Shown here: positions 3 through 19,314 of the stretch, in pieces
How positions within the stretch are numbered: the stretch's first letter is position 1
Layout of the letters: the number at the start of each line of letters is the position of its first letter
NCBI GenBank assembly: GCA_002841685.1
Contig: PHAM01000012.1
Coordinates: 1-37,322, forward strand
Direction of reading: 5' to 3'
Source of the DNA: Elusimicrobia bacterium HGW-Elusimicrobia-2
GTDB taxonomy: Bacteria; CG03
DNA: 37,322 nucleotides
Made by a program: the position numbers and the translations under genes
Notes under the pieces: generated by a model
The model's database searches: none
What the model saw: the letters and a program-made list of their open reading frames with translations, nothing else
What the model was told of the DNA's origin: nothing

Positions 3-914
3 GTGGGTTGTATTGTTGCTAACGTGGGGACACTGATCAATATATGCCAGGCGGTGGAGAAGAATAAAGCCGTAACGCGGGTGAATGTCACAATCACGGG
101 AGATGTGGAAAATCCTGTTATAGCCCGCTGCGCCGTCGGCACCCGTGTGGCGGATATTGTCGCGCTTGCCGGGCCGCGCCAACAGAACCATACGCTGATA
201 AACGGCGGGCCCATGATGGGAGACATAATCGATGAGGATTTTTGTGTTACCAAGACTGCCGGAGCCATCCTTGTTCTGCCGGGCGATTCATCCCTCGTGG
301 CCAAAAAAATGAGGACAGCGCAGGTCTCAAAGCGCAGGGCGAAATCAATATGCGAGCAGTGCATGGATTGCACTCTGGTCTGCCCGAGAAATCTTCTGGG
401 CCACCGGATATTCCCTCACAAAATAATGAGGATGAATTTTTTCGCATCGCCCGAGTTTAATGAGATCAGCTCGGGAAGTTTCCTCTGTTCCCAGTGCGGC
501 CTTTGTGAGGCAGCCTGTCCGCAGAACCTTTCTCCGCGTGCGATTTTTAAATCCGTTAAAGAGGAACTTATCAAAAAGGGGCACAAAAATCTGCTCACCT
601 CATCGGATCTCCGGGCGCATAGCGAAAGAGCGTTAAGGCAATTCTCCTCTCATCGCCTTGTTCAGAGACTGGGGCTTGCGGAATGTGATAAATCTGCCGG
701 ATTTTATCCGGAAGAGATCGTGCCGGATAAAGTAAAAATAGCTCTGCATCAGAATGCGGGGCTCCCGTCTTTTCCCGTTGTAAAGCCGGGCGCGGAAGTG
801 AAGGAAGGCGATATCATAGCCAAGGCGCCGGAGAAGGCGTTAGGGGCGAATCTGCACGCCAGCATATCGGGGACGGTGGTGAAAATTGATGAAAATTATA
901 TTTATATCGGTTAA
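3..914 (+). CDS. pduS: PduS/RnfC-like Fe-S flavoprotein of a microcompartment (5' partial)
   Basis: The reading frame is open at the left window edge, so the N-terminal NADH/FMN-binding part is missing; about 303 residues are visible. An SLBB-like segment comes first, with 'NGGPMMG' near residue 67. Two 4Fe-4S ferredoxin motifs follow: CEQCMDCTLVCP starting at residue 117 and CSQCGLCEAACP starting at residue 162. The C-terminal part resembles a biotinyl/lipoyl-like barrel-sandwich, as in RnfC. The N-terminal 'NVGTLINICQAV' stretch and the order SLBB, two clusters, C-terminal sandwich fit PduS, the cobalamin reductase/electron-transfer protein of BMCs, better than membrane RnfC. The PduT-like shell gene that follows supports this, because PduS and PduT are thought to pass electrons across the shell. 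Family assignment is firm. The electron acceptor in this BMC is unknown, since no B12 enzyme is visible in the window. Confidence 0.85.
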   Translation: MGCIVANVGTLINICQAVEKNKAVTRVNVTITGDVENPVIARCAVGTRVADIVALAGPRQQNHTLINGGPMMGDIIDEDFCVTKTAGAILVLPGDSSLVAKKMRTAQVSKRRAKSICEQCMDCTLVCPRNLLGHRIFPHKIMRMNFFASPEFNEISSGSFLCSQCGLCEAACPQNLSPRAIFKSVKEELIKKGHKNLLTSSDLRAHSERALRQFSSHRLVQRLGLAECDKSAGFYPEEIVPDKVKIALHQNAGLPSFPVVKPGAEVKEGDIIAKAPEKALGANLHASISGTVVKIDENYIYIG

Positions 915-938: not shown

Positions 939-1487
939 ATGGAAGCTGCGATAGGTTTGGTAGAACTGTGTTCCATTTCCAGCGGATTTGAGGTTGCTGA
1001 CGCTATGCTCAAAATGTCGCCAGTTGAGCTCGTGGAAGCGCATCCTGTCTGCCCCGGGAAATTTATAATTCTTGTTACGGGAACTCTTTCAGATGTTGCC
1101 AGCAGCATGGATAAGGGGATAGATATGGCGGGGGAATTCCTGGTGGATACGCTGACCATCCCGAATGTTCACACTGAAGTTATAAGGGCTATCCGGGGAA
1201 TCACGGATGTTTCAGAGATAGAATCTTTAGGATCGGTGGAGACGATGTCCGTGGCCGCGTGCATTGTCGCCGCGGATGCGGCCAGAAAAAAAGCGGATGT
1301 CAGTTTGATAGAGATACGCATAGCGATGGGCATCGGCGGCAAAAGTTATTTCACCCTCACCGGAGAGGTGGGGGCGGTGAAGACGGCCGTCAACGCCGCC
1401 TGTAAAGCGGTCGCGGGCGACGGGATCATAGTCCATAAGATGGTGATTCCTCAGGTCCACCCCGATATGAAAAAAGTTGTTTTATAA
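939..1487 (+). CDS. pduT: PduT-like BMC-T shell protein (two BMC domains)
   Basis: This 182-residue protein has two fused BMC domains: residues 1-90 beginning AIGLVELCSIS, and 91-182 beginning SVETMSVAACI. The length matches PduT (about 184). In PduT a cysteine at the trimer pore holds a 4Fe-4S cluster; here Cys38 lies in the same motif (VCPGKF), so an Fe-S pore is predicted. The second domain carries 'MGIGGKSYFTLTGEVGAV' (residues 128-145). The start ATG at 939 has an upstream AAAAAGGAG ribosome site. It follows the PduS-like gene by 24 bp, so the electron-transfer pair is probably co-transcribed. After it the BMC operon is interrupted by an AT-rich restriction island; the shell and enzyme genes resume at 5725. 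Confidence 0.92.
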   Translation: MEAAIGLVELCSISSGFEVADAMLKMSPVELVEAHPVCPGKFIILVTGTLSDVASSMDKGIDMAGEFLVDTLTIPNVHTEVIRAIRGITDVSEIESLGSVETMSVAACIVAADAARKKADVSLIEIRIAMGIGGKSYFTLTGEVGAVKTAVNAACKAVAGDGIIVHKMVIPQVHPDMKKVVL

Positions 1488-1497
1488 AGGATGGACA

Positions 1498-3087
1498 ATG
1501 CTGAGAAATAGTTCGGAAATATTCACTGTAAAACAGGCCAGCGAATGGGCGAGTAAGCATCTCAAAAGAAATGTCACCACTTCAAATATTTCTTATCTTA
1601 TTCAATACGGAAAAGTCAAAAAATTTAGAGACAACGGAAATGCCCTTATAAAAAAAGCGGATTTGGAGGATTATTATAATTCTTTTTTAGGTAGAAGAGA
1701 AATTAACTGGAAGGCAAAATTGGGAGATGATTTAAATTGGAAATTGTCGTTCGATTATCTTAAGGAAGCTGATACAACTAAACATGTTCACCGCCTGCAT
1801 CCATATAAAGGGAAATTTATTCCTCAATTGGTGGAATACTTTTTAGACGACAATACGGATGATTTTAAAAAGGAAATATATTTTAAAAAGGGCGATATTG
1901 TTTTGGACCCTTTTTGCGGCAGCGGAACCGCATTAGTTCAGGCAAATGAATTGGGGATTCATGCGATAGGAACAGACATATCCGCTTTTAATGTTATGAT
2001 TAGCAATACAAAAATTGGGAAATATGATTTAACGAAATTACTTTATGAAATTGGAAAAATAACAAATGCGTTACGACAATTTATTGCAGATTCAAATACC
2101 GTTAAATTTGAAGCGCATTTACTGGAAGAATTAAAAAAATTTAATAATAATTATTTTCCATCCCCTAAATTCAGATATGAAGTAAGGCGCGGAGAAATAA
2201 ATGAAGAAAAATATGGCAATGAAAAAGCCAAACAGTTTTTGACTATATATTCAAATCTTGTTAAGCAATACGGGATACAACTTAAACAGAATAAATCCGA
2301 TACGTTTCTTGACAAATGGTATCTGGAACATGTTCGGGAAGAGATTGATTTTGTTTACAATTTTGTTGAAAAAGTGAAAGACTTAAATTCGCGAAAAATA
2401 ATAAAAATCATTTTAAGCAGAACCATACGTTCTTGTCGCGCAACAACGCATTCTGATTTAGCGACACTGAAAGAACTTATTACAACGACGTATTATTGCT
2501 CAAAACACGGGAAAATCTGCAAGCCGTTATTTTCTATATTAAGCTGGTGGAAAAGATATAGTGAAGACACTATTCAAAGATTGTGCGCATTTGATAAATT
2601 AAGAACGGATACTTTTCAAAAGTGTTTAACAGGTGACGCCAGAACAATAAATATTTTTTCAAAATTCAGGAGAACAAGGAACAAATTTGATATACTGCTT
2701 AAAGAGCAGAAAATAAAAGGAATTTTTTCAAGCCCACCTTATGTTGGTTTAATTAATTATCATGAGCAACATGCTTATGCGTATGATTTGTTTGCTTTTG
2801 ATAGGAAAGATGATTTAGAAATAGGTCCTCTGTTTAGAGGGCAGGGTAATGAAGCAAAAAAAACATATGTTCAGGGGATTTCAGATGTATTAAATAATTG
2901 TAAAAAATTTTTAGCGACGGATTTCCATGTATTTTTAGTCGCGAATGACAAATTTAATTTATATCCAACAATAGCTGAAAAATCCGGAATGAAAATTGTA
3001 AATCAGTTCAAGCGTCCGGTGCTTAATAGAACGGAAAGAGATAAAGGCGCATATTCGGAAATAATTTTTCATTTAAGGAGTAAATGA
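1498..3087 (+). CDS. Type II DNA methyltransferase, N4-cytosine/N6-adenine class
   Basis: This is the modification enzyme of a restriction system. The AdoMet-binding motif DPFCGSGTALVQANELG starts near residue 137 and the catalytic motif SSPPYVG lies near residue 410. S-P-P-Y is typical of amino-methyltransferases, most often N4-cytosine. 'HPYKGKFIPQLVEYFL' near residue 100 is a conserved segment of this class. The first 60 residues (FTVKQASEWASKHL...) look like a helix-turn-helix/excisionase-type DNA-binding fold. I chose ATG 1498 because AAAGGATGG lies just upstream; the in-frame ATG at 1477 would overlap pduT. The gene is far richer in A+T than the BMC genes around it and is followed by an AIPR gene and a TdeIII-type endonuclease, so this looks like a horizontally acquired island. 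Target base not proven; GGNCC is suggested only by the partner endonuclease family. Confidence 0.85.
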   Translation: MLRNSSEIFTVKQASEWASKHLKRNVTTSNISYLIQYGKVKKFRDNGNALIKKADLEDYYNSFLGRREINWKAKLGDDLNWKLSFDYLKEADTTKHVHRLHPYKGKFIPQLVEYFLDDNTDDFKKEIYFKKGDIVLDPFCGSGTALVQANELGIHAIGTDISAFNVMISNTKIGKYDLTKLLYEIGKITNALRQFIADSNTVKFEAHLLEELKKFNNNYFPSPKFRYEVRRGEINEEKYGNEKAKQFLTIYSNLVKQYGIQLKQNKSDTFLDKWYLEHVREEIDFVYNFVEKVKDLNSRKIIKIILSRTIRSCRATTHSDLATLKELITTTYYCSKHGKICKPLFSILSWWKRYSEDTIQRLCAFDKLRTDTFQKCLTGDARTINIFSKFRRTRNKFDILLKEQKIKGIFSSPPYVGLINYHEQHAYAYDLFAFDRKDDLEIGPLFRGQGNEAKKTYVQGISDVLNNCKKFLATDFHVFLVANDKFNLYPTIAEKSGMKIVNQFKRPVLNRTERDKGAYSEIIFHLRSK

Positions 3088-3088
3088 A

Positions 3089-4904
3089 ATGGACATTATT
3101 ATAAAAGGCTATCTTGATAGATTTGTTGAAGAGTTTGGACTAGATGGAAAAGAAATGGATATTAATTTTGAAAAGATGTGTTACTACGCAATTTTGAGTA
3201 ATGAATTGAACAATTTAGATGACAATGATATAGATGATATAAGTGTTGGTAAAAATAAAGGCATCGATGGTATTTGTTTTTCAATTGACGGTAAGATTGT
3301 TACAAATAAATCTGAAATTGAAGAATTGAGAGTTGCTCAAAAAAATTTTGAGATGTCACTTTGTTTTATTCAAGCAAAAACGTCTTCTAAATTTTCAGAC
3401 AGTGAGATAGGAAATTTTAGTGATACGGTCATTGATTTTTTATCAGAGAACCCTAAATATGATTTGACATCGAAAGCTAAAGAATACCACGATATTTATC
3501 TTGAAATACTTAAATTGCTTACATTTTTAAAATCATTTAATTGTAAATTATACTATTGCTCAACCGGAGTATGGAATAATGGAACAAGTTGTTCAAAAAC
3601 AATAGACATTAAGAAGGGCATTATAAGAAAAATGGAGAAATTTAAAAATGGACAAATTGAGATATTTCCAATTGACAAAGAAAAATTACGAAAACTTTAT
3701 GATAAAGCGAATCAACCGCTAAATACGGATTTTCTTTTTTCAAAAAAAATGACATTGGCTACTGTTAGTGATGTCGAAGAATCGCACATAGGGGTATTAC
3801 CTTTTAGTGAATTTAGAAAAATTATAATAGATAGTGATACAGATAAACTTAAGCCGTTGTTTTCCGATAATGTAAGGGATTTTTTGGGTATTGATGAAAA
3901 AGTAAATGATAATATCAGTAAAACAATTACTGAAAAACAATTTTCATTGTTTCAAATATTGAATAATGGTATTACAATTATTGCAGAAGAAAATAAAGGG
4001 CGAGGTGATAGATTTATTCTTAGTAACTATCAAATAGTTAATGGATGCCAAACTTCGAATGTTTTGTATTTAAATAGACATATAGAGGGTATTGACAGTT
4101 TGTTAATACCTATTATATGCCTATGCACTTGCCCCCACTTAAGCGCAATTGTGAATTATTCATCGTCGGATAAATTGCAATATTTACATATGGTGGTGTC
4201 AAGTGCATAAGCATTTACCTATTAAACTTATTATTACGGATAGTGAGAATATTCGGGACAGGACAATTGTATCAACAAATAATCAAAATAAAATAAAAGA
4301 AGAACAACTATTGGCTCTTACGTCTTTTCAAAAAGGGCTTGAAGAGTTCTATAAAAGTATGGATGATGGGTTGTATTATGAAAGGCGAAAATCTCAATAT
4401 TCATTCGACCCAAGAATTAAGAAAAAAGTAATAGTTGATATTAGAGAACAAATTAAAACATATGTTGCCATGTTTCTTGAAGAGCCACACGTAGTGTCTG
4501 GTTACTTTGGGAAAGTGTATAAAGAAAGAAATGAACAAATATTTCGCAAAGAGCATAAATACGAACCTTATTATTTAAGTGGTTTGACTCAGTTTAAATT
4601 TAAAACATTAATCAATTCCAAAAAAATAGATAGGAAGTATAATAAAGCGAGATATCATATATTTATGCTTTTCAGAAAGATTACCGAACCTAATGAAAAG
4701 GTTGATGCTTCAAATAACAAAATCCAAAAATATTGTGACGAGATAATTAAAACACTTCGAGACGAAAAGAAGTGCTTAGAAACTTTTATGAATGTTATAG
4801 CAATTATTGATGCCTCAGGAATTGATATTAATGATCAGAAAGAGATATATAAGAAATCGACAACGAATGTTTTGATTGAAGAATTCGTAAAACGGTATAA
4901 ATAA
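3089..4904 (+). pseudogene. AIPR-family (abortive infection/phage resistance) gene, split by a 100-bp insertion
   Basis: Two adjacent open frames (3089-4210 and 4203-4904) are the two halves of one AIPR gene. The first half ends with the AIPR hallmark: NVRDFLG, then a spaced NNGITIIAEEN, then 'YQIVNGCQTSNVLYLNR'. The second half continues with the expected 'IVSTNNQNKIKEEQLLAL' and 'YYERRKSQY'. The break is caused by a small element at 4116-4215. Removing it with one copy of its 9-bp target duplication (109 bp) joins the frames exactly, through ...LLIPIKLIITDSEN..., giving an ancestral protein of about 568 residues, normal for the family. AIPR proteins often accompany restriction-modification genes, as here between methyltransferase and endonuclease. 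With the insertion, the first half adds about 32 foreign residues and stops at 4210. The second half lacks a proven start (GTG at 4203 is possible). Loss of function is likely; function of a split protein cannot be excluded. Confidence 0.85.
4116..4215. mobile_element. MITE-like miniature inverted-repeat element, 100 bp
   Basis: The element has imperfect terminal inverted repeats of about 23 bp. The left end reads TATGCCTATGCACTTG and continues CCCCCAC. The reverse complement of the right end reads AATGCTTATGCACTTG and continues ACACCAC: 19 of 23 positions match. It is flanked by a perfect 9-bp direct repeat, TACCTATTA, at 4107-4115 and 4216-4224, the expected target-site duplication. It encodes no protein. 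Deleting element plus one flank restores the host AIPR reading frame. A 9-bp duplication is made by several transposase families (for example IS4/Tn10-like or IS1), so the helper transposase cannot be named. No second copy and no transposase are seen in this window. Confidence 0.85.
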
Positions 4905-5704
4905 TGACGACTTTATCAAAAGGATTTAAAAGGCATATCACTGAGACAATTAAAGTTTGCTTACGCGATAAATTTCAGAATTATAAACCTGAAACCGCAA
5001 ATATGCCGTTTCATTATCGCTTATTAGGTAAAGACAGAATGGCCTTATTTTCTTTTCTTCAATCGTTAAACACAACATTTGGAACTTCAATTTACGAGCC
5101 TGTTGCGAAAGAACTTGCAAAAACAATTTTCAAGGAAGTTTATACTCAATACAAACTTGGAAATATTATCACTCAAGCTGCTCAAAATGAGATTCAGAAA
5201 ATAATGAATAATCTTTCGGTGGGCGGCGAGGTAAATAAGAGCGGAGAAACAGAAAAAATAAGAAAGGTTGCGAGATCGGGGAAAGAAAACAAACTCAAAT
5301 CAGTAAAAGTGGATTTGTTCCTGGTTTCGAAAAAAAATGAAGTGTTTATGTTTGATTTAAAAACAGTTAAGCCAAACAAGGGTGATTTTATTTCCTATAA
5401 AAGAAATATGCTTGAATGGCTTGCAGTTTATTTTTACCAAGATCAGAAAGCAAAAGTAAATACGCTCATTGCAATACCGTATAATCCTTATGAACCAAAA
5501 CCCTATGCGAGGTGGACAATGAAAGGAATGCTAGATTTGAAAGAAGAAGTAAAAGTTGCTGAGGAATTTTGGAATTTTTTAGGTGGAAATGGAGCGTATG
5601 AGGATTTACTGGATTGTTTTGAACAAGCAGGTGTTGAATTAAGAGTAGAAATTGATAGATATTTTTCCAAATTTAAAAATAGGATGAAACGCAAAAATGA
5701 TTAA
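4904..5704 (+). CDS. TdeIII-family type II restriction endonuclease
   Basis: The 266-residue length and the N-terminal segment 'FHYRLLGKDRMALFSFLQ' followed by 'FGTSIYEPVAKELA' match the TdeIII/MjaII family, whose characterised members cut GGNCC. The catalytic core is a PD-(D/E)xK fold: 'KVDLFLV' near residue 132 supplies the first acid and 'VFMFDLKTVKPN' near residue 147 supplies the D-x-K. The ATG overlaps the stop of the AIPR gene by one base, so M, AIPR and R genes form one transcription unit. Base composition is AT-rich like its two partners. Specificity is an inference from family membership. A functional endonuclease would require the 1498-3087 methyltransferase to protect the host. 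Confidence 0.85.
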   Translation: MTTLSKGFKRHITETIKVCLRDKFQNYKPETANMPFHYRLLGKDRMALFSFLQSLNTTFGTSIYEPVAKELAKTIFKEVYTQYKLGNIITQAAQNEIQKIMNNLSVGGEVNKSGETEKIRKVARSGKENKLKSVKVDLFLVSKKNEVFMFDLKTVKPNKGDFISYKRNMLEWLAVYFYQDQKAKVNTLIAIPYNPYEPKPYARWTMKGMLDLKEEVKVAEEFWNFLGGNGAYEDLLDCFEQAGVELRVEIDRYFSKFKNRMKRKND

Positions 5705-5724: not shown

Positions 5725-6174
5725 ATGAATATAGCCATGGGTTCCGATCACGGTGGATTTGATTTGAAAGAGTATCTTAAAGCAGCTCTCCAGAAAAAAG
5801 GGCATACGGTTGTAGATTTCGGTTGCTATTCTCTTGACGCTGTGGATTATCCGGACATAGCTTTTCTTGTGGCTGAAGCCATGAAAGATAAAAAATACGA
5901 CAAAGCCATTCTCATAGACGGCACGGGCGGCGGGATGACGCTGGCGGCGAATAAGGTGAAGGGGGCCAGGGCCGTGTGCGCTTATAATGAGATGACGGGC
6001 GCCTTCGCCTCGGAACACGATGACGCCAACATCCTCTGCCTGGGCGGCAAGATGATAGGCGAACTGCTCGCAGAGAAAATAGCGGATGCCTATATAAACA
6101 CGCCCTTCGGCGGAGCGCGCCATCAAAGGCGGCTGGATAAGATAGCCGCTATTGAGAGGAAATATTTCAAATGA
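5725..6174 (+). CDS. RpiB/LacA-LacB-family sugar-phosphate isomerase, copy 1 (no active-site Cys)
   Basis: 149 residues, the normal RpiB length, with the family start 'IAMGSDHGGFDLKEYL' and 'GARAVCAYNEMTGAF'. RpiB enzymes interconvert ribose 5-phosphate and ribulose 5-phosphate using a cysteine in a CGSG/CGTG motif. Here that position is Asp65 in LIDGTGGG. The HNDAN-type segment that binds substrate is kept as H98-DDAN. The next gene, a second RpiB overlapping by 4 bp, has the reverse pattern. GGGAGG lies 9 bp before the start. This is the first BMC gene after the restriction island. It could be a catalytically altered isomerase or one half of a heteromer like LacA/LacB of galactose-6-phosphate isomerase. 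The family is certain; the substrate is not. Confidence 0.88.
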   Translation: MNIAMGSDHGGFDLKEYLKAALQKKGHTVVDFGCYSLDAVDYPDIAFLVAEAMKDKKYDKAILIDGTGGGMTLAANKVKGARAVCAYNEMTGAFASEHDDANILCLGGKMIGELLAEKIADAYINTPFGGARHQRRLDKIAAIERKYFK

Positions 6175-6608
6175 AAATTGCCGTGGCTTCGGATCACGCC
6201 GGTTTCAAGATCAAGGAAAATATTAAAAAATATTTGGCGGACAAGGGGTGTATGGTAGAAGATTTCGGCGCCCCGGGCGAAGAATCTTTTGATTATCCGG
6301 ATTCCGCGTATCCCGCGGCCAGGTCTATAGCAGAGGGAAAGAATGACAAAGGCGTGTTTGTGTGCGGCTCTGGTAACGGGGTGAATATAGTGGCAAATAA
6401 AGTAAAAGGCATCCGTTCGGCGCTCGCGTATAACAGGGAAGCCGCCGGATTTGCCGCCACCGATACGGGCTGTCAGGTGATCTGTTTCGGGGCGAGGTTT
6501 ATGGGTATGGATATGATTAAGGAATGTATAGATGCCTGGCTTTCGGCGCCGGCGGCAACGGGCCGGCATCTCAGGAGAATAAATAAAATAAACGGGGGAG
6601 AAAGATGA
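6171..6608 (+). CDS. rpiB: RpiB-family sugar-phosphate isomerase, copy 2 (Cys retained)
   Basis: 145 residues, starting 'KIAVASDHAGFKIKE'. The catalytic-cysteine motif is present as C65 in VCGSGNG, followed by 'ANKVKGIRSALAYN'. The segment where copy 1 has HDDAN reads TDTGCQ here, so the usual His98-Asn99 pair is missing. The ATG overlaps the stop of copy 1 (ATGA), which implies translational coupling and near-equal amounts of both proteins. Two RpiB-like genes beside deoC and shell genes are characteristic of SPU-type microcompartments, where pentose phosphates are the suggested substrate. Whether this protein works alone or with copy 1 cannot be decided from sequence. Confidence 0.88.
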   Translation: MKIAVASDHAGFKIKENIKKYLADKGCMVEDFGAPGEESFDYPDSAYPAARSIAEGKNDKGVFVCGSGNGVNIVANKVKGIRSALAYNREAAGFAATDTGCQVICFGARFMGMDMIKECIDAWLSAPAATGRHLRRINKINGGER

Positions 6609-6925
6609 ATGCCGCTAAAGTTATAGGCCGTGTTGTAGCCACGGCGAAATGGAAAACACTGGAGGGGAAAACACTGCTGCTCCTTCAGCCCACGGACTGG
6701 TCGGGCAGGGCGTGCGGCGACATTATCGTCGCCGCTGACAGCGTCGGGGCCGGCGCGGGGGAATTCGTTTTTTATGTTAAATCCAGAGAGGCCTGCTTTT
6801 CGTGGCTGTCGGGGAATAAACAGTTGCTGGCTGAAATGCCGCCGCTTGACGCTACGGTTATGGGTATTATAGACGGTGTGGATATGATAGATGAGCCGGA
6901 TGCCGGAAAGAAGCTCGTAAAATGA
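6605..6925 (+). CDS. BMC-P pentamer vertex protein (EutN/CcmL/PduN family), first copy
   Basis: 106 residues with the BMC-P pattern: 'KVIGRVVATAKWKTLEGKTL' near the N-terminus, then LLLQPTDW, IIVAADSVGAGAGEFV in the middle, and VMGIIDGVDM close to the C-terminus. Five copies cap each vertex of a microcompartment shell. The start overlaps the stop of the second rpiB by 4 bp and is preceded by GGGGGAGAAAG. A second BMC-P follows with another 4-bp overlap, so the locus makes at least two vertex proteins. Residues 52-56 (GAGAG) form the usual glycine-rich loop. Confidence 0.92.
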   Translation: MNAAKVIGRVVATAKWKTLEGKTLLLLQPTDWSGRACGDIIVAADSVGAGAGEFVFYVKSREACFSWLSGNKQLLAEMPPLDATVMGIIDGVDMIDEPDAGKKLVK

Positions 6926-7215
6926 AAATATGTAAAGTGGTGGGCAACGTTTGGGCGACGAGGAAGCAGGCGTGCCTGGTAAATTATAAACTTCTTCTTG
7001 TCACACCCTATGACACGGAAACGGGGAAAACGAACGGAGAAACCGTCATGGCTGTTGATGTCGTCGGAGCCGGGAAGGGCAATATAGTGCTTGTGAATGA
7101 CGAAGGCAATTCCGCCAGAGGAATGCTTGAGAAACCCGTCGCGGGGATAAGAACTGTCGTCTGCGGCATAGTTGATGAGACCTTGCTTGACGGAAAGCAT
7201 AGAAAATTTCATTAG
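6922..7215 (+). CDS. BMC-P pentamer vertex protein, second copy
   Basis: 97 residues, beginning '[20 protein letters not shown]', followed by [25 protein letters not shown] and a C-terminal [14 protein letters not shown]. This is the standard EutN/CcmL layout. It diverges clearly from the preceding BMC-P, so the pair is not a recent duplication. SPU and related loci often encode several BMC-P types that may occupy different vertices. ATGA overlap with the gene before; an AGGAGG site just after its stop serves the next gene, deoC. Confidence 0.92.
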
Positions 7216-7223: not shown

Positions 7224-8264
7224 ATGGATAGAAAAGAAGTTGAACAGATCGTGAGGGAAATTTTATCGCAGAATCAGAAGAGCCCCGTATCGGGTAAAAC
7301 GGCTCCCGTGATCAATTACGTCTCGCCTGTCACTTACGGGTCTTCCGGCAAGCCGGTTTCCAATAATGTGAAAGTCACTATCGGCACGGCGGGTAAAATT
7401 TTTTCAAATGACGGCTTTGCGCCGCTTAAACAGCAGGCGTCTTCCCGTGAGTTTAAATGCCCTTTGCTTGAAGGGACAGTCAGCGAATGCATAGGCTGCG
7501 CGCAGTGCGTTGTCACCCGTCCTGAGGACGTAAAGGCGATAATGCTGGCGGGCGCCTCAAGGATATCGGCTCTGCATCCGGAAAACGGCTCTTATGATTC
7601 GGCCATCGCCTCGATGATAGATCACACACTCCTTAAAGCCAATGCCACCCAGGAACAGGTAGGGGAATTGTGCGAAGAGGCTAAAAAATATCATTTCGCA
7701 ACCGTTTGTGTGAACCCCGGCTATGTGGCTTTATCAAAGGATCTTCTCAAAGGTTCTGATGTGGGAGTGACAACTGTCATCGGTTTTCCTCTGGGCGCGA
7801 CGACATCCACCACAAAAGCCATAGAGGCGCGCGACGCTATCGCCGCCGGCGCGGATGAGATAGACATGGTTATAAATGTGGGAGCGCTCAAAAGCGGCAA
7901 TTATCAGCTCGCGCTGGACGATATCAAGGCCGTCAGAGAAGTGACAAGAGGGCATGTCCTTAAAGTTATTATTGAAACGGCGCTACTGACAAAAGAGGAA
8001 AAGATCAAGGCCTGCGAACTTTCAAAGGAAGCCGGGGCTGATTTTGTGAAGACCTCAACCGGTTTTTCAACGGGAGGCGCTACGGTTGAGGACATCAAGC
8101 TTATGCGTTCCACCGTGGGCCCGGCTATGGGAGTCAAGGCATCGGGCGGCGTTCACAACAGGGACGATGTTGTGGCGCTTAAAGCCGCCGGCGCCACGCG
8201 CATAGGGGCTTCGGCTTCGGTGGCGATCGTTACCGGCGCGAAAACAGAATCGAAAGGATATTGA
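7224..8264 (+). CDS. deoC: Deoxyribose-phosphate aldolase with encapsulation peptide and Cys-rich linker
   Basis: DeoC cleaves 2-deoxyribose 5-phosphate to acetaldehyde and glyceraldehyde 3-phosphate. The aldolase core covers about residues 127-340. The Schiff-base lysine is K247 in [10 protein letters not shown], the second catalytic lysine is K276 in FVKTSTGF, and the acid is D214 in DEIDMVIN. Phosphate-binding '[10 protein letters not shown]' is near the C-terminus. The protein is about 100 residues longer than typical DeoC because of an N-terminal extension. Residues 1-16 ([16 protein letters not shown]) form an amphipathic helix like known BMC encapsulation peptides. A Ser/Pro/Gly-rich linker follows, then a cysteine cluster C79-x9-C89-x2-C92-x2-C95, which is not part of the aldolase fold and could bind a metal or Fe-S cluster. 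This is the most likely signature enzyme of the microcompartment; the product acetaldehyde explains the need for a shell. Confidence 0.93.
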
Positions 8265-8340
8265 AAAATACCGGTGTTATTGAATAATAATGCCCGTATG
8301 GGAGGGGACAGAACCAAGCCCCGGAAACAGGAGGATTAAA

Positions 8341-8613
8341 ATGGCACAGATGGCATTGGGAATGGTTGAAACGAAGGGTCTGATCGGAATGGTGGAAGCG
8401 TCCGACGCGATGGTCAAAGCGGCGAAGGTTGAACTTTCAGGATACGAGAAGATCGGCGGCGGTTATGTCACCACATTCGTCAGAGGCGAGGTGGGCGCGG
8501 TCCGCGCGGCTGTTGAAGCCGGTTCCGCGGCCGCCCAGAGAGTGGGAGAGCTTGTGTCCGTTCATGTAATACCCAGGCCGGACGACCAGTTGGAAGGGAT
8601 CCTGCCGAAATAA
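8341..8613 (+). CDS. BMC-H hexamer shell protein (PduA/EutM type)
   Basis: 90 residues, a single BMC domain: '[20 protein letters not shown]', the pore loop KIGGGYVT, '[16 protein letters not shown]' and the C-terminal '[18 protein letters not shown]'. This is the main facet protein of the shell. I chose ATG 8341 because ACAGGAGG lies 6 bp upstream; an in-frame ATG at 8290 would add 17 residues unlike any BMC-H. A 76-bp gap separates it from deoC, the longest gap between BMC genes here; no clear promoter or terminator was seen in it. Confidence 0.95.
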
Positions 8614-8634: not shown

Positions 8635-8913
8635 ATGGATAAAGAGCGTCTGGAGAATCTGATCTTTGACGAACTCCTGAAGTTAAATCCCAAAGAGAAA
8701 AATATCAAGAGGGGTTTTTTCGCGGGAGATTATCTGCGAGGCCTGTCGCCTAAGGCGTCAGGCTCCGTCAGTCTCGTTACAGAGAATGATGTCAGGGAAT
8801 TTCTGAAAACAGGCTCAAGGGTACTGAGTGTGCCCGGCGGGGCTATAATCACGCCTCTTGCCCGGGAACTTATGGATGAGAAGAATGTAAAGGTGGAATA
8901 TGAAAGACCTTAA
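8635..8913 (+). CDS. Small BMC-associated protein with encapsulation-like N-terminus, function unknown
   Basis: 92 residues. The first 19 (MDKERLENLIFDELLKLNP) form an amphipathic helix similar to the encapsulation peptide of the neighbouring DeoC. A linker follows, then a C-terminal module 'VTENDVREFLKTG' and 'VPGGAIITPLARELMDE'. Modules with 'P-x-G-A-x-(I/V)-T-P-L-A-R-x' occur in N-terminal extensions of several BMC cargo enzymes, so this may be a free-standing version, perhaps an adaptor that organises cargo. That function is inferred. It is the last BMC gene: its 3' end overlaps the first V-ATPase gene by 14 bp, so the two operons are fused. Confidence 0.6.
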   Translation: MDKERLENLIFDELLKLNPKEKNIKRGFFAGDYLRGLSPKASGSVSLVTENDVREFLKTGSRVLSVPGGAIITPLARELMDEKNVKVEYERP

Positions 8914-9229
8914 TGGCAAAATCCTTCAGATAGCGGAAAAGGAAAAGGATCTCGTCGGGAGAAAAGCCGCGCTGAAGAAAAAAATAGAGAAAATTCTCAA
9001 GGCCGCCGCGTCCGAGGAGGAGCGCCTGATGAGCGATGCCGACCGCAGGGCGGGCGAAGAGAAGGAAAAAATGCTCTCTGAAAGCAGGGAACGTTCGCAG
9101 GAGCAGGTGAGACAGATGCTCCTTGACGCTGAGATAGAGGCGAAAAGAGAGGCTGTTATTTTCAGGCAAAAAAGCGGGAAGTTGATCCTCTCTCTCTTCA
9201 AAGAACTGGAAGGGTACTTTAAAAATTGA
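8900..9229 (+). CDS. V/A-type ATPase peripheral stalk subunit H/G
   Basis: 109 residues, almost wholly charged heptads (KEKDLVGRKAALKKKIEKIL..., AASEEERLMSDADRRAGEEK...), predicting a long coiled coil as in AhaH/NtpF-type stalk subunits, which pair with subunit E. There is no catalytic motif. The ATG at 8900 lies inside the 3' end of the BMC tail gene, with AAGGTGG upstream. Its stop (TGA) overlaps the TTG start of the next gene. First gene of the V/A-ATPase operon. Assignment rests on coiled-coil character and position. Confidence 0.75.
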   Translation: MKDLNGKILQIAEKEKDLVGRKAALKKKIEKILKAAASEEERLMSDADRRAGEEKEKMLSESRERSQEQVRQMLLDAEIEAKREAVIFRQKSGKLILSLFKELEGYFKN

Positions 9230-11190
9230 TCGCTCCTCTCAGAAAGATCTATCTGGCGGGCCCGGCGGGGCGTTTCAATTCCGTTTTCGCTTTTCTTCAG
9301 AAAAAAGGCGTGATGGAACTTGCCGAAACTCCTTTAGAGATCACGAGCCCTGCCGCAGATAAGGACAGCGTTTCTTTTTACGATATCGCCGGGAGAGTGG
9401 AGGATCTGAAAGAGCTCATACAGTTCCTCGCCGAAGGCGGCGAGGCCTCGGCAAAGGGTCAGAAAAAGATCCCCGGTTTTAACGCGGAGAAGATCCTCGC
9501 GCGATTTCCCGGTTTAAAAAAGGCTTTCGCCGAAAACCGCGGCAGAATAAACGAACTGTCGGACAAAATATCCCGTATTGAGAAAGCGCTGTCACTGCCG
9601 GTTGATTTTACCTCGCTTTCCGTGCTTTCCATGACCTCCTGGCGGCTTTTTTCGTTTCCGGCGAAAAAAGCATCAAACCTTGAGGACTTTTTCTCCGGCT
9701 TTTCAGATTCCGTCCTAGAGTGCGTTTATTCCGATTCCAAAAAGAAAATATACATGCTGCTTTTCCCCTCCGGCAAAATGCCGTCTGACGAAAATTTGCA
9801 AAGCGCATCGCTCATCTCGCGAATTGAGTTTATGGATATCCCTGCGGATCCGGAATCTGAATTGAAAAAACTCAGAGAAGATCTGATCATCGCCAAAGAT
9901 GAGGAGGAAATGCTCTACGACGAGAAAAAAGGCATGGCCGCGTATATGGGGCAGCTGCTGCTCGTCTATGATTATTATGAAAATGTGAAAATAAGAGAGG
10001 CCTCAAAACTGGAGAAGGTGTTTGAGACCGGAAAAATGTTCGTGCTGTCGGGCTGGATCAGGGAAAAAATCACAGGGGATGTTTTGAACGAGACGGCTTT
10101 GAATTTCCCCGATCTTTACTGTGAATCGAGAAAACCCCTGAAGGGGGAAGATGTGCCGGTGAGCCTGGAAAACAATGACCTCGCCCAACCTTATGAATTT
10201 CTGACGTCCATGTACGGCGTGCCTTCATACGGCTCGGTGGATCCGTCGCCGCACGCCGCCGTTTTTTTCGCTTTCTTTTTCGGGCTCTGCCTGACGGACG
10301 CCATGTACGGCCTTGTTATAGCGGGTGTCTCCGCCTGGGCGCTGGGATGGAAGAAAACACCCCGTGAACTTAAAAAAATCTTGAGAATATTTCTCGGCGG
10401 CGGTTTGTTCACGGTTGCCGCGGGGGCGGTCACGGGCGGCTGGTGCGGACCCGATTTTCTTTCGCGTCTCCCCGGGAGCCTCGGTTTTTTAAAAATCGCC
10501 GCGGACAAACTTGTTTTGTTCGATCCTGTTAAAGACGCGCTTTTATTTGTAGGAATAGCCATTGCCTGCGGTTTTGCGCAGGTTATGTGGGGAATGGTTC
10601 TGAAATGTGTTGATGACTTCAGGCAGGGCCGGACATGGGCTCTTTTCTTTGAGGATATAGCCGCTATTATGATACAGATCTCAATGCCGGCGCTGCTGGC
10701 GGTTTACGCGCTCAAGATTTTTACGCCGGGGGCAATGCTGCTGAATACGCTGCATATCATGTTCGGCGCCGGCGCCGCGTCCATAGTGACATATAACCTG
10801 ATAACGCAGGAAGGCCCCATTTTCAAACTGCTGTGGAGTTATTACGGCCTTTATTCCGTGCTCACGGGCAACGCGTTTTCAGATATTCTTTCCTATATCA
10901 GGCTGTTCGCCCTGGGATTGACGACGGGGCTGGTGGCTATGGCGATAAACGAGATCGTCTGGATAGTGGTGTCATGGGGCGTGTGGGCTATCCCGTTTGC
11001 GGCTGTTTTTTTTGTGCTTCTGCACGCCGGTAATCTTGTGATCAATATGCTGGGCGCGACGGTGCACACGATGAGGCTGCAGTTTTACGAGTTTTTCACC
11101 AAATTTATAAGAACTGGCGGCCATTATTTTAAACCGCTTAAAAATTTCGTAAAATACTCTTCGCTTGAGAGCGCAGAGACAGGACGGTGA
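9226..11190 (+). CDS. atpI: V/A-type ATP synthase subunit I (a), membrane stator
   Basis: 654 residues. The N-terminal half (about 1-340) is a soluble, partly coiled-coil stator arm. The C-terminal half holds about seven or eight membrane segments, starting near 'AAVFFAFFFGLCLTDAMYGL'. The essential half-channel arginine is R559 in the canonical SYIRLFALGL motif. It works with the K rotor ring to move H+ or Na+. The start is TTG at 9226, overlapping the previous stop; no better start is seen, and the protein begins with the family-like 'IAPLRKIYLAG'. The length is typical (600-700). Confidence 0.93.
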   Translation: MIAPLRKIYLAGPAGRFNSVFAFLQKKGVMELAETPLEITSPAADKDSVSFYDIAGRVEDLKELIQFLAEGGEASAKGQKKIPGFNAEKILARFPGLKKAFAENRGRINELSDKISRIEKALSLPVDFTSLSVLSMTSWRLFSFPAKKASNLEDFFSGFSDSVLECVYSDSKKKIYMLLFPSGKMPSDENLQSASLISRIEFMDIPADPESELKKLREDLIIAKDEEEMLYDEKKGMAAYMGQLLLVYDYYENVKIREASKLEKVFETGKMFVLSGWIREKITGDVLNETALNFPDLYCESRKPLKGEDVPVSLENNDLAQPYEFLTSMYGVPSYGSVDPSPHAAVFFAFFFGLCLTDAMYGLVIAGVSAWALGWKKTPRELKKILRIFLGGGLFTVAAGAVTGGWCGPDFLSRLPGSLGFLKIAADKLVLFDPVKDALLFVGIAIACGFAQVMWGMVLKCVDDFRQGRTWALFFEDIAAIMIQISMPALLAVYALKIFTPGAMLLNTLHIMFGAGAASIVTYNLITQEGPIFKLLWSYYGLYSVLTGNAFSDILSYIRLFALGLTTGLVAMAINEIVWIVVSWGVWAIPFAAVFFVLLHAGNLVINMLGATVHTMRLQFYEFFTKFIRTGGHYFKPLKNFVKYSSLESAETGR

Positions 11191-11227
11191 TTATGATGGT
11201 TGAGAAAGTTTATCGGGAGGTAATAAA

Positions 11228-11701
11228 ATGGATGGATTGACAATTGCTTTATTCGGGGCCGGGATCGCCGTGTTTCTCGGGGGGATAGGCTCCGCCGTCG
11301 GCGTGTCGACGGCCGGTCAGGCCGCCGCCGGCGTTTTGAGCGAGAAGCCGGAAAAATTCGGCGAGACATTTATTCTTGTGGCTCTTCCCGGAACACAGGG
11401 CATTTACGGCTTCGCCGTGGGATTTATGGCGATCCTCAAGCTCGGTCTTCTGGGCGGCGGCACGCCCGCGGCGGTATCTGTCAACCAGGGGCTTCTTCTT
11501 CTGGCCGCCTGCATTCCCGTGGGAGTGGCCGGGCTCTTGAGCGGAATCTATCAGGGCAGGGTCTGCGCTTCAGGAATAGGTATTGTGGCCAAACAGGAAG
11601 GCAAATTCGGACTCGCGGTCATATACGGCATTCTTGTGGAGACTTACGCGCTGCTGGGTTTTGTCACATCGATCCTGGTGGTCCTCTCGGTGCAGCTCTA
11701 A
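11228..11701 (+). CDS. atpK: V/A-type ATP synthase subunit K (c ring proteolipid), Na+-type
   Basis: 157 residues with four membrane helices, a duplicated hairpin as in Enterococcus hirae NtpK. The carboxylate is E138 in VETYALLGF. The other Na+ ligands of NtpK are also present: T56-Q57 in LPGTQGIYGF and Q109 in GIYQGRV. The first hairpin lacks a carboxylate, as usual for V-type rings, giving one ion per two hairpins. The ligand set predicts sodium coupling, inferred from residue conservation with NtpK. GGGAGG precedes the ATG. Confidence 0.93.
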   Translation: MDGLTIALFGAGIAVFLGGIGSAVGVSTAGQAAAGVLSEKPEKFGETFILVALPGTQGIYGFAVGFMAILKLGLLGGGTPAAVSVNQGLLLLAACIPVGVAGLLSGIYQGRVCASGIGIVAKQEGKFGLAVIYGILVETYALLGFVTSILVVLSVQL

Positions 11702-11702
11702 A

Positions 11703-12254
11703 ATGGCCTGGCAGGAACTTCTTGACAGTATAGAAAAGAGCATGAGCGATGAGCTCGATGAGATGCTTAAAAGCGCCGAGGATAAAAAAAAGAAGAGTCT
11801 CGCCGCCGCTGAAGCTAACGCGCGCAAGCTGCTGGATGATGCCCGCGGGGAATCTGAACGGGCGGCCGGACTCCTGCACGATGAGATCATCTCAGGCGGC
11901 CGGATACAGTCAAAAAACATCCTTCGCAAAGCGCATCTTCACGAGATAAACGCCGTTTACGACGCGTTTAAGGAAAAACTGATGGCCTCCGCTGATCTGA
12001 AAAAGAAGATACTGATTGATTTTATAGAGAAAAACGCGGCCGGCGCCCCGGAGGCGGAAGTGTCCGCCGAAGTGCACTCTCTGCTTAAGAGCGCGGATTT
12101 TTCAAAAAAAATAAAATTGGTAAAAACAAACACCGATTGTCCCGTTATCATCAACATGGATAAAATAGTTATGAGCTTTGACTGGGATGAATTTCTACAG
12201 AAATTCAAAGCCGACACTATCAGAAAAATGAGCGAAGAAGGATCCGGTGCTTAA
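11703..12254 (+). CDS. atpE: V/A-type ATPase subunit E (peripheral stalk)
   Basis: 183 residues. The N-terminal half is a long charged helix rich in Ala, Lys and Glu (MSDELDEMLKSAEDKKKKS, AAAEANARKLLDDARGE...), the C-terminal half a small globular domain, as in V-type subunit E that anchors the catalytic head to the stalk. I chose ATG 11703, one base after the subunit K stop; the frame extends further upstream only inside K. The 3' end overlaps the next gene by 8 bp. Sequence conservation in this family is low, so the call leans on fold type and operon position. Confidence 0.82.
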   Translation: MAWQELLDSIEKSMSDELDEMLKSAEDKKKKSLAAAEANARKLLDDARGESERAAGLLHDEIISGGRIQSKNILRKAHLHEINAVYDAFKEKLMASADLKKKILIDFIEKNAAGAPEAEVSAEVHSLLKSADFSKKIKLVKTNTDCPVIINMDKIVMSFDWDEFLQKFKADTIRKMSEEGSGA

Positions 12255-12783
12255 CAGTTTGACATTAGAACAGTCTCCTTTCGGACGCGGTGCCGGCGCT
12301 GTTTTCGCTGTGGGGAAAGCCCGCGTGCTGGAAACACTGCTCTTAAGCCCGCTGGAGCTGAAAGCGGCTTTCAACGCCGGGGATTTTCACGGCGCCGAAT
12401 CTGTTATAAAGAGCAGGGCTTTCGGACGCTTGGTAGATAACGGTAAGGAAGATTTCGGCATAGGAAAATATATCGCCGAAACCTCGGCCCTTTTCTCGGA
12501 AATATCGCAAAAAAGCGGGGCTTTTTTCACCTCTGACGAATCGGGATTTCTGCGATTCCTCGAGGAAAATTCCAGGAACGATATCCTCTCGGCGCTGGAC
12601 ATTTACCCCGCGCCGCTGGATTTCTATGGATTTATTGACGATAAAAGAAAAAGCCTGATGGGGCGGATAGAGGGCGATGACGTGCTGGAATATATATGGC
12701 TGGCGCTCTGGTGGCAGGCCAGGATAGTGAGGATGATACTCATGGCCAAGATGCGGGAAGCGGATTTTAAATATGTCTCCTGA
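12247..12783 (+). CDS. Probable V/A-type ATPase subunit C/d, short form
   Basis: 178 residues, mainly helical, sitting exactly where subunit C (AC39/d family) belongs, between E and F. Classical C subunits have 330-390 residues, so this is about half length. 'FLRFLEENSRNDILSAL' and a C-terminal 'LEYIWLALWWQARIVRMILM' recall the C subunit's helical tail. The start is GTG 12247 inside the end of subunit E. Either a reduced C subunit or an unrelated replacement, as in bacterial lineages that use a divergent C-like protein. Function is inferred from position only. Confidence 0.55.
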   Translation: MLNSLTLEQSPFGRGAGAVFAVGKARVLETLLLSPLELKAAFNAGDFHGAESVIKSRAFGRLVDNGKEDFGIGKYIAETSALFSEISQKSGAFFTSDESGFLRFLEENSRNDILSALDIYPAPLDFYGFIDDKRKSLMGRIEGDDVLEYIWLALWWQARIVRMILMAKMREADFKYVS

Positions 12784-13075
12784 GGAAAAAAAAGTTTTTG
12801 CCTGCGGCGAAAACTTTTTCTGCAGCCTTTTTGCCTCGCTCGGCGCCGCGACGGCGGAATGGAAAGGCGATGAAGCCGAGGTGTTTGAAAAAATGAAAGC
12901 CGCACAGGGAGCTTTTTTCATATTCTCGCAGAGCGCTTTTGAGGATCTGAAAAAAAATTTCAAGGAGCGTTTTGCCGACGCCCCGTATATAGTCTTCCCT
13001 CTCCCGGGGGAAGAGAACAGGATAGAAAGGGAAATAGCGGAGCTTGTAAAAATTGCCGTGGGAGTCGAGATATAG
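12773..13075 (+). CDS. atpF: V/A-type ATPase subunit F (central stalk)
   Basis: 100 residues, the normal size of the Rossmann-like subunit F that joins the rotor shaft. Features: FACGENFFCSLFASLGA at the start, 'AAQGAFFIFSQSAFEDLKK' in the middle and 'APYIVFPLPGEE' before the C-terminal helix. The P-x-P-G motif is typical for this family. The ATG at 12773 overlaps the end of the previous gene by 11 bp. Located directly before subunit A, as in most V/A operons. Confidence 0.85.
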   Translation: MSPEEKKVFACGENFFCSLFASLGAATAEWKGDEAEVFEKMKAAQGAFFIFSQSAFEDLKKNFKERFADAPYIVFPLPGEENRIEREIAELVKIAVGVEI

Positions 13076-13094
13076 CGCACCGGAGAACAGAAAT

Positions 13095-14846
13095 ATGAAT
13101 AAAAAAGGAAAAATTATCAGAGTGGCCGGGCCCCTTATTCAGGCGGTCGGCCTCGATGACGTCAAGATGTATGAGGTCGTGCATGTCGGCAGACAGGGAC
13201 TCATAGGAGAGGTTATAGAGATCCAGGGAGAGGTGATTTCCGTGCAGGTCTATGAGGAGACAGGGGGCATAGCCCCGGGTGAGCCGGTCGAGGCGACGGG
13301 TTCTCCTCTTACTGTCGAGCTCGGGCCGGGACTTATACAGTCCATATACGACGGCATCCAGCGCCCGCTTGAAAAGGTGCGGGAGCAGACAGGCGATTAT
13401 ATCTTGCGCGGCGTGAGGGCAGCGGGCCTCGCGCGCGACAAAAAATGGGAATTCAAGCCTCTTGCCGCAAACGGCACCCAGGTGCAGGAGTTCTCGATTC
13501 TCGGAACAGTTAAGGAATCAGAGGCTATAGAAAGCAAGATCATGGTGCCGCCCGGCGTTTCCGGAAAAGTTTCGGGAATCAAGGCGGGTTCTTTTCTTGT
13601 GACGGACGATATCTGCAAAGTGGGGGATACTCCGGTTCAGATGATGTTCAAATGGCCGGTGCGCAAGCCTCTGCCCTATACGAAAAAAATACAGCCGTCG
13701 GAGCCGCTCGTTACCGGCACAAGAGTGATAGATTCTTTTTTTCCTGTGGCCAAGGGCGGCACGGGATGTATTCCGGGGCCTTTCGGCAGCGGCAAAACGG
13801 TTGTTCTGCACCAGCTGGCGAAATGGTCTGACGCTGATGTCGTGGTTTACGTCGGCTGCGGGGAAAGAGGCAATGAGATGACGGATGTCCTCACGGAATT
13901 TCCCGAACTGCTGGATCCCAGGAGCGGGCGGCCTCTTCTTGAGAGAACGGTGCTGATAGCCAACACGTCAAACATGCCTGTCGCCGCCAGGGAAGCCTCT
14001 ATTTATACAGGTATTACGATAGCTGAGTATTTCCGCAATCAGGGTATGGATGTCGCCGTGATGGCCGATTCCACCTCCCGCTGGGCGGAGGCCCTCAGAG
14101 AAATGTCCGGCCGGCTGGAAGAGATGCCGGGCGAAGAAGGTTATCCGGCATATCTGACTTCAAGGATCGCCGGTTTTTACGAGAGAAGCGGAGTGGTGGA
14201 GGCGGGCACGCCTCCCAGGACGGGTTCCGTGTCAGTGGTCGGAGCTGTTTCGCCCCCCGGCGGCGATCTTTCCGACCCCGTGGTGCAGGCGACTCTGCGG
14301 ATGGTGAAGGTGTTCTGGAGCCTGGAATCGTCACTGGCTTATCAGAGGCATTTTCCGGCGATCAACTGGCTGAATTCCTATTCGCTGTATATAGACGATA
14401 TCACGGATTTTTATGAGAAAAACAGCATGAAAGAGTTTCCCGCGATGAGAAAACAAGCTCTGAAAATCCTGCAGGAGGAATCGAGCCTCCAGGAAATTGT
14501 CCGTCTTGTAGGAGTGGAATCGATCTCCGACGAGGACCGTCTGACTCTTGAAACCGCCAAGATCCTAAGAGAGGATTTCCTGCATCAGCACGCTTTTGAC
14601 GAGCAGGACGCCTATACCGCTGTCAGTAAACAGTTCAAGATGCTGGGAATAATCATGATGTTTCATGAACGCGCCGAAAAGGCCGTGAAAAAAGGCGTGC
14701 CGATAAAGCAGATCATGGATATTCCCTGCAAGGAAAAAATAGCCAGGATGAAAATAATGGATGAGGCGGAATTACCCGAGGTGGAAAAAATACTTAAAGA
14801 AAATTTTGCCGCGCTTCAGGTCGCAGGCGGAGGGAAGGAAGAATGA
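13095..14846 (+). CDS. atpA: V/A-type ATP synthase catalytic subunit A
   Basis: 583 residues, normal length. The Walker A loop is G228-PFGSGKT-235. Other family marks include 'VYVGCGERGNEMTDVL', 'ADSTSRWAEALREMSGRLEE' and 'EGYPAYLTSRIAGFYERSG'. The non-homologous insert typical of A subunits occupies residues of about 120-190. I chose ATG 13095, whose product starts KKGKIIRVAGPLIQAVG, as in homologues. Its stop TGA (14844-14846) overlaps an ATG that was the native start of subunit B; that B copy is now truncated after 20 codons by a 3-kb island. Confidence 0.97.
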   Translation: MNKKGKIIRVAGPLIQAVGLDDVKMYEVVHVGRQGLIGEVIEIQGEVISVQVYEETGGIAPGEPVEATGSPLTVELGPGLIQSIYDGIQRPLEKVREQTGDYILRGVRAAGLARDKKWEFKPLAANGTQVQEFSILGTVKESEAIESKIMVPPGVSGKVSGIKAGSFLVTDDICKVGDTPVQMMFKWPVRKPLPYTKKIQPSEPLVTGTRVIDSFFPVAKGGTGCIPGPFGSGKTVVLHQLAKWSDADVVVYVGCGERGNEMTDVLTEFPELLDPRSGRPLLERTVLIANTSNMPVAAREASIYTGITIAEYFRNQGMDVAVMADSTSRWAEALREMSGRLEEMPGEEGYPAYLTSRIAGFYERSGVVEAGTPPRTGSVSVVGAVSPPGGDLSDPVVQATLRMVKVFWSLESSLAYQRHFPAINWLNSYSLYIDDITDFYEKNSMKEFPAMRKQALKILQEESSLQEIVRLVGVESISDEDRLTLETAKILREDFLHQHAFDEQDAYTAVSKQFKMLGIIMMFHERAEKAVKKGVPIKQIMDIPCKEKIARMKIMDEAELPEVEKILKENFAALQVAGGGKEE

Positions 14847-14903
14847 AAGAATATAGAAGTATCAGGAGCATACAGGGGCCGCTCATCAGGGTTGACGGTG
14901 TGA
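14843..14903 (+). repeat. 61-bp direct repeat, left copy (att-like island boundary)
   Basis: Identical to 17935-17995 except position 14872 (A) against 17964 (T), a synonymous change in Ile codon 10. Sequence similarity ends sharply on both sides: upstream is the end of subunit A, downstream is island DNA. Confidence 0.95.
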
Positions 14904-14977
14904 AAATGACATCCTTAATATTATCTTGTTCAGGACATTGTTTTATTGACAATGCTTTTGCTGAGGTTGACATATAA
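14843..14977 (+). pseudogene. Truncated 5' end of subunit B gene (native copy)
   Basis: The first 20 codons ([20 protein letters not shown]) are identical in protein to the full B subunit at 17935 and overlap the subunit A stop by ATGA, the expected native junction. From 14904 the sequence becomes unrelated and AT-rich; the frame runs 24 further codons and stops at 14975-14977. It would encode a 44-residue peptide with no function. It marks the left edge of the island inserted here. Confidence 0.88.
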
Positions 14978-14978
14978 T
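14973..14978 (+). promoter_or_regulatory. Possible -10 box inside the island (weak)
   Basis: TATAAT occurs at 14973-14978. A perfect TTGACA lies at 14946-14951, but the 21-bp spacing is longer than the usual 16-19, and a second TTGACA (14967-14972) directly abuts the -10. It could serve the HEAT-repeat gene at 15126. Confidence 0.25.
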
Positions 14979-15120: not shown

Positions 15121-15125
15121 ACAGG

Positions 15126-19311: not shown

Positions 19312-19314
19312 TAC

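What the first reader, a model, noticed from the sequence alone, without database searches (positions are those of the whole stretch)
5725..6608. Tandem RpiB pair with complementary active-site losses
Copy 1 has Asp65 where the catalytic Cys should be but keeps H98-DDAN. Copy 2 keeps C65-GSG but has lost the His/Asn segment. In RpiB dimers residues from both subunits meet in one site, and LacA/LacB form a heteromer with a similar division. A coupled (ATGA) pair could make one hybrid isomerase inside the microcompartment.
Basis: partly seen in the sequence, partly recalled or inferred. Interest (0 to 1): 0.62.

Follow-up and report, generated by a model that had tools for sequence, protein, structure and literature searches.

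The report
Compartment-type isomerase beside altered ordinary isomerase
Two neighbouring sugar-phosphate isomerase genes in a bacterial organelle operon each lack a different textbook catalytic residue, but the first is not damaged: its aspartate marks a version of the enzyme that, in our sample, occurs only in bacteria with these protein organelles, while the second is an ordinary copy that has lost half of its active site in this one family.

Summary
Copy A (5725-6174) has Asp65/His98; copy B (6171-6608) has Cys65/Asp98; they overlap by ATGA. The pattern is conserved in six genomes (four genera) of the window's family, and both genes are under purifying selection.

The reading of A as damaged is wrong. 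Asp65 marks a distinct RpiB clade. Of sampled genomes outside the phylum, 23 of 23 with an Asp65 copy (13 families) carry microcompartment shell genes; 0 of 25 with only Cys65 copies (18 families) do. There the Asp65 copy stands alone in its locus, sometimes with an encapsulation-peptide-like N-terminus or fused to DeoC. A is most likely a complete isomerase with an Asp base.

B belongs to the ordinary Cys65 class. In the rest of the phylum B keeps His98-Asn99; only the window's family lost them. No RpiA or third RpiB is found.

The hybrid survives only as one account of B. For it: LacA (Asp65, His kept) and LacB (Cys65, His lost) show the same split and share one site. Against it: B keeps its phosphate-binding Arg/His/Arg, and EryI shows that a lone Cys65/His98-minus member can exist.

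The parts
5725..6174 (+). Copy A: Asp65-type (microcompartment-type) RpiB-family isomerase, 149 aa; Asp65 at 5917-5919, His98 at 6016-6018
   Evidence: PF02502 167.8 bits; Asp65 clade; shell-gene association
6171..6608 (+). Copy B: ordinary Cys65-lineage RpiB, 145 aa; Cys65 at 6363-6365, Asp98 in place of His at 6462-6464
   Evidence: PF02502 157.1 bits; His98-Asn99 lost only in the window's family
6171..6174 (+). ATGA overlap of the stop codon of A and the start codon of B
   Evidence: sequence
6605..6925 (+). BMC-P (CcmL/EutN-type) shell vertex protein
   Evidence: NCBIfam CcmL model 64.6 bits, below that model's cut-off
6922..7215 (+). second BMC-P shell vertex protein
   Evidence: NCBIfam CcmL model 49.7 bits, below that model's cut-off
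7224..8264 (+). DeoC deoxyribose-phosphate aldolase with a long N-terminal extension beginning with an encapsulation-peptide-like helix
   Evidence: TIGR00126 284 bits over residues 128-336; helix judged from the sequence
8290..8613 (+). BMC-H hexameric shell protein
   Evidence: PF00936
8635..8913 (+). small protein: EP-like helix plus the ITPLAR module that is fused to Asp65 RpiB in other genomes
939..1487 (+). BMC-T shell protein (two PF00936 domains), directly before the A-B pair in relatives that lack the restriction insert
3..914 (+). PduS/RnfC-like iron-sulfur protein of the compartment locus (start outside the window)

Best explanation
The pair is one whole enzyme of a special type plus one altered ordinary enzyme, not two halves of a broken one. 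Copy A is the microcompartment-type RpiB-family isomerase. In this clade an aspartate stands where ordinary RpiB has its catalytic cysteine and probably serves as the general base, as Glu75 does in the M. tuberculosis enzyme; the rest of A's site is intact, so A most likely works as a homomer in the SPU compartment beside the aldolase DeoC. Copy B belongs to the ordinary Cys65 RpiB type, which in this phylum sits in the same operon. In the window's family B lost the ring-opening half of its site but is still under selection. B's job is unsettled: a LacAB-like mixed oligomer in which B's Cys side pairs with A's His side is somewhat more likely than B acting alone on an open-chain substrate. Shown here: residues, clades, synteny, selection, shell-gene association. 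Inferred: catalysis by Asp65, encapsulation of A, oligomeric state, substrate.
For: Asp65 copies: 23 of 23 genomes (13 families) have BMC shell genes; Cys65-only: 0 of 25 (18 families) (residues; shell search; Fisher p 3e-14 by genome, 5e-9 by family). Asp65 copies are the only RpiB in their locus, with EP-like N-termini, DeoC fusions or the ITPLAR module. They form one clade (95/91), not rejected with the motif columns left out. All other site residues of A are invariant in 13 genomes of the phylum. A has dN/dS about 0.03-0.08. The one genome of the phylum without shell genes has a single complete Cys65 RpiB and no A. Carboxylate base precedent: MtRpiB Glu75 (PMC3755991, PMC4783025).
Against: No enzyme data. 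Asp65 as base is not shown; Asn99 is also Asp in A, which may disturb the oxyanion site. LacA carries Asp65 in a site that is vacant in the LacAB crystal, so Asp65 can also accompany a dead half-site. The Asp65-BMC link is one clade, so the counts are not independent events, and only top-ranked loci were inspected. A itself has no encapsulation peptide.
Confidence: 0.72

Rival explanations
1. In this family A and B form a LacAB-like heteromer: B supplies Asp8, His9, Tyr42, Cys65 and Ser67, and A supplies His98, Arg132, His133 and Arg136 to one working site per AB dimer. A may also form its own homomers. This is an account of B and is compatible with the best explanation.
For: B's Cys face is invariant (8 of 8 positions) while His98, Asn99 and Asn102 are gone. 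LacA (Asp65, His kept) and LacB (Cys65, His lost) show the same split and share one site at their interface (PMC3755991). ATGA coupling and constant adjacency. No RpiA or other RpiB in the genome, yet Rpe is present. A few positions where B of this family matches A but not other B (F32, D44, Y87, A95, K139).
Against: Asp65 relatives stand alone. B keeps R132, H133 and R136, which LacB lost. B evolves about three times faster than A. Outside this family B is complete and needs no partner.
Confidence: 0.42
2. B of this family works alone with a changed job: like EryI it isomerises a sugar phosphate that stays open-chain (for example erythrose-4-phosphate), so it needs no ring-opening His98, or it keeps a low activity with Asp98.
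For: EryI-annotated relatives in triose-phosphate-isomerase operons have Cys65 and lack His98 with no second RpiB beside them. B scores higher with the erythrulose-4-P isomerase model than A does (95.9 against 77.9 bits). Phosphate-binding residues and a fixed Asp98-Thr99 are conserved.
Against: B is far below the cut-off of that model (240 bits). The substrate of EryI is from general knowledge, not tested. H102N abolished activity of Leishmania RpiB on ribose-5-phosphate, so a pentose role would need another solution.
Confidence: 0.28
3. B of this family is dispensable and in decay; A does the cell's isomerisation.
For: B evolves faster than A, and the Gly-Gly of its phosphate loop is gone.
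Against: dN/dS 0.09-0.22, intact frames in four genera, all Cys-face and phosphate residues invariant, fixed Asp98-Thr99.
Confidence: 0.12

Closest known systems
Ribose-5-phosphate isomerase B (RpiB, e.g. PDB 3he8 from C. thermocellum)
   Same: Same fold family and length, ungapped alignment over the whole of A; best PDB match of both copies
   Different: A has Asp for the Cys base and Asp99 for Asn99; B has Asp98-Thr99 for His98-Asn99
Galactose-6-phosphate isomerase LacA/LacB
   Same: Adjacent RpiB-family genes; one member Asp65 with His kept, the other Cys65 with His lost
   Different: B lacks LacB's C-terminal extension and keeps R/H/R; A keeps His9; both far below the LacA and LacB cut-offs; no lac genes; membership in a compartment operon
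M. tuberculosis-type RpiB (Glu75 base)
   Same: Precedent for a carboxylate replacing the Cys base
   Different: The Glu sits at another position; A has Asp exactly in the Cys column
SPU microcompartment loci (Axen 2014, Sutter 2021)
   Same: DeoC plus pfam02502 isomerase plus shell genes
   Different: The text passages read describe one RpiB per locus and do not mention Asp65; this phylum has a tandem Asp65/Cys65 pair
EryI / erythrulose-4-phosphate isomerase
   Same: Cys65 kept and His98 absent, as in B
   Different: Different operon (triose-phosphate isomerase), H133 and R136 not kept, B below the model cut-off

Membership tests
RpiB/LacA/LacB superfamily (PF02502) | Full-length match above the gathering score | tested here: met
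   A 167.8 and B 157.1 bits against 24.7
RpiB equivalog (TIGR01120) | Score above the curated cut-off of 138.65 | tested here: inconclusive
   A 141.8 (just above), B 132.4 (below)
RpiB equivalog (TIGR01120) | Catalytic Cys65 and His98 in one protein | tested here: not met
   A has Asp65; B has Asp98
LacAB | Score above the LacA or LacB cut-offs | tested here: not met
   Best 97.7 against 164 (LacA) and 96.6 against 234 (LacB)
LacAB | Complementary Cys-side and His-side subunits in adjacent genes | tested here: met
   Alignment with LacA/LacB of Lactococcus, Enterococcus and Loigolactobacillus
LacAB | Cys-side subunit has lost the phosphate-binding R/H/R and has a C-terminal extra helix | tested here: not met
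   B keeps R132, H133, R136 and ends at residue 145
LacAB | Obligate heteromer | not testable with these tools
   Only single chains can be modelled
SPU microcompartment locus | DeoC-type aldolase and pfam02502 isomerase with shell genes | tested here: met
SPU microcompartment locus | Aldehyde dehydrogenase and phosphotransacylase in the locus | not tested
   The locus continues upstream of the window; both are visible in related loci L160 and L163 by eye
Asp65 microcompartment RpiB clade (defined here) | Asp65 and clade membership | tested here: met
   A only
EryI | Score above the NF051858 cut-off (240) | tested here: not met
   B 95.9 bits

The most novel reading that the evidence does not exclude
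Asp65 is a general adaptation of RpiB-family enzymes to life inside aldehyde-producing microcompartments: the reactive catalytic thiolate is replaced by a carboxylate that acetaldehyde cannot modify. In the window's family such an Asp65 enzyme has also captured an ordinary Cys65 RpiB that lost its own His half, giving a LacAB-like heteromer caught at an intermediate stage; LacA may itself come from the Asp65 clade.
Probability: 0.2. Interest if true: 0.75.

Novelty: new variant of a known kind. Interest (0 to 1): 0.55.

Why it matters
SPU compartments are among the most common microcompartment types, yet the role of their isomerase rests on annotation. A residue that cleanly separates the compartment isomerase from the housekeeping one gives a sequence marker for these organelles, suggests that the encapsulated chemistry differs from plain RpiB, and offers a testable reason (base chemistry in an aldehyde-rich lumen). 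The pair in this phylum offers a graded series (single complete RpiB without shell; Asp65 plus complete Cys65; Asp65 plus His-less Cys65) for testing how LacAB-like heteromers could arise.

Tried and rejected
Random decay of B: rejected as the main account because of dN/dS 0.09-0.22 and fixed Asp98-Thr99 in six genomes. Sequencing or assembly error: rejected by relatives. A third isomerase missed through an incomplete genome: unlikely, since none of 16 genomes of the phylum has RpiA and each genome of the window's family where PF02502 was found has exactly two copies. Apparent absence of the pair in G006 and G012: their contigs end beside the BMC-T gene, where the pair should start. LacA as a proven member of the Asp65 clade: it nests there with all columns but is unresolved when the motif is left out, so not claimed. 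B being two unrelated genes within the phylum: one B clade is not rejected (p-AU 0.5). Paper searches for EryI/RpiB and the RpiB general base gave nothing useful.

Full report
Observation. Both ORFs exist at the stated places, overlap by ATGA and are full-length members of PF02502, 39% identical. Copy A reads ILIDGTGGGM with His98 in SEHDDAN. Copy B reads VFVCGSGNGV with D98-T-G-C-Q in place of the H-N-D-A-N segment. In Leishmania RpiB, C69S and H102N abolish activity on ribose-5-phosphate (PMC4783025).

Within the phylum. The window's contig belongs to a 1.78 Mb genome with exactly two PF02502 genes, no RpiA, and an Rpe. The two nearest relatives of the pair lie in assemblies titled Elusimicrobia. 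Of 16 genomes of the phylum, 13 have A followed by B, in the order PduS-like, BMC-T, A, B, BMC-P, BMC-P, DeoC, BMC-H as far as the contigs reach; in G007 and G009 there is a gap of some hundred bases between A and B. Two more (G006, G012) have shell genes, but the contig ends at the BMC-T gene beside the expected position. The one genome without any PF00936 gene (G014, 97% complete) has a single complete Cys65/His98 RpiB next to a plain DeoC. No genome of the phylum has a detectable RpiA.

Order of events. A is Asp65, His98, Asp99, Asn102 in all 13. B is Cys65 in all, but keeps His98-Asn99-Asn102 outside the window's family and is Asp98-Thr99 in all six genomes of that family. So the two departures are not a matched pair of losses: Asp65 is old and shared, while the loss of His98 is confined to one family. 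Both genes are under purifying selection, A more strongly than B.

Asp65 is not damage. A profile of A against 386 genomes spread over the bacterial domain found more Asp65 proteins. Inspecting top-ranked loci and their neighbourhoods gave 23 genomes in 13 families outside the phylum with an Asp65 copy. Most lie next to shell genes and/or an extended DeoC. In family f99 the Asp65 protein starts with an encapsulation-peptide-like helix (MVSEDIIKKIVKEVAAQL); in f154 it is fused to DeoC. It is the only RpiB in its fetched locus, and an ordinary Cys65/His98 copy lies elsewhere in several of these genomes. A whole-genome search for shell proteins then gave 23 of 23 positive for genomes with Asp65 and 0 of 25 for genomes with only Cys65 copies drawn from the same ranking; Fisher p 3e-14 by genome and 5e-9 by family. 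The Asp65 proteins form one clade, and one clade is not rejected with the motif columns removed, so this looks like one origin that stayed linked to compartments rather than many independent events; the p-values overstate independence accordingly.

How A probably works. All other site residues of A are invariant, and a carboxylate base has a precedent in MtRpiB Glu75. I infer that Asp65 is the general base and that A is active as a homomer. Why Asp: the RpiB cysteine is unusually reactive, being seen oxidised in crystals and known to react with iodoacetate (PMC3212906), and SPU compartments are thought to release acetaldehyde through DeoC (PMC8217296). Replacing the thiolate may protect the enzyme. 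This is inference and untested; an altered substrate is the alternative.

What B does. Three facts favour a hybrid in this family: B's Cys face is fully conserved while its His face is catalytically gone; LacA and LacB show the same split, LacA with Asp65 and LacB without His98; and no other ribose-5-phosphate isomerase is found. Three facts caution against it: Asp65 relatives stand alone; B keeps the phosphate-binding R132/H133/R136 that LacB lost; and EryI-type proteins show that a Cys65 protein without His98 can exist with no RpiB partner beside it, presumably because its four-carbon substrate cannot close a ring (substrate from general knowledge). I put the hybrid at about 0.42 and a lone changed function at about 0.28.

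A possible partner of A. A small module with the motif ITxxDV...ITPLAR is fused to the N- or C-terminus of the Asp65 isomerase in seven sampled loci (L199, L200, L201, L205, L207, L215, L219) and stands alone elsewhere, including window 8635-8913. The stand-alone forms begin with an EP-like helix (read from sequence). No Pfam family matches it. It may tether A to the compartment, since A here has no such helix of its own; this is inference.

Limits. Genomes are mostly metagenome assemblies; the association was sampled from top-ranked matches, not from all SPU loci; there is no heteromer model and there are no enzyme data. The held papers on SPU loci (PMC4207490, PMC8217296) name the enzyme RpiB, and the passages read do not mention Asp65 or a tandem pair; supplementary tables and subscription papers were not searchable.

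Noticed in passing
window 8635-8913; L199, L200, L201, L205, L207, L215, L219: A roughly 45-residue ITPLAR module without a Pfam family, stand-alone with an EP-like helix in some compartment operons and fused to either end of the Asp65 isomerase in others; it also begins proteins of about 300 aa in the phylum (L109, L113, L114, L115, L116). Possible encapsulation adaptor.
   Followed up: partly
window 1477-5704: A restriction-modification module (N6/N4 methyltransferase, AIPR protein, TdeIII-type endonuclease, 279.9 bits) sits inside the compartment operon between BMC-T and copy A; a methyltransferase and the endonuclease are also there in G003, but not in the other pair loci inspected.
   Followed up: partly
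window 3089-4904: The AIPR gene is split over two frames (profile positions 1-79 in ORF 3089-4210, 86-302 in ORF 4203-4904), so it looks frameshifted.
   Followed up: partly
window 8900-19935: A V/A-type ATPase operon (G-like, I, C, A, B and D subunits) follows the compartment genes directly on the same strand, with a HEAT-repeat protein inside it.
   Followed up: no
L123, L193, L194: LacA of three lactic acid bacteria has Asp in the catalytic-Cys column and groups with the Asp65 compartment clade when all columns are used, unresolved without the motif; LacA may descend from a compartment-type isomerase.
   Followed up: partly
L166-L170: In several genomes an ordinary Cys65 RpiB is fused to a downstream domain that looks like serine hydroxymethyltransferase (judged by eye from the sequence, not searched).
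   Followed up: no
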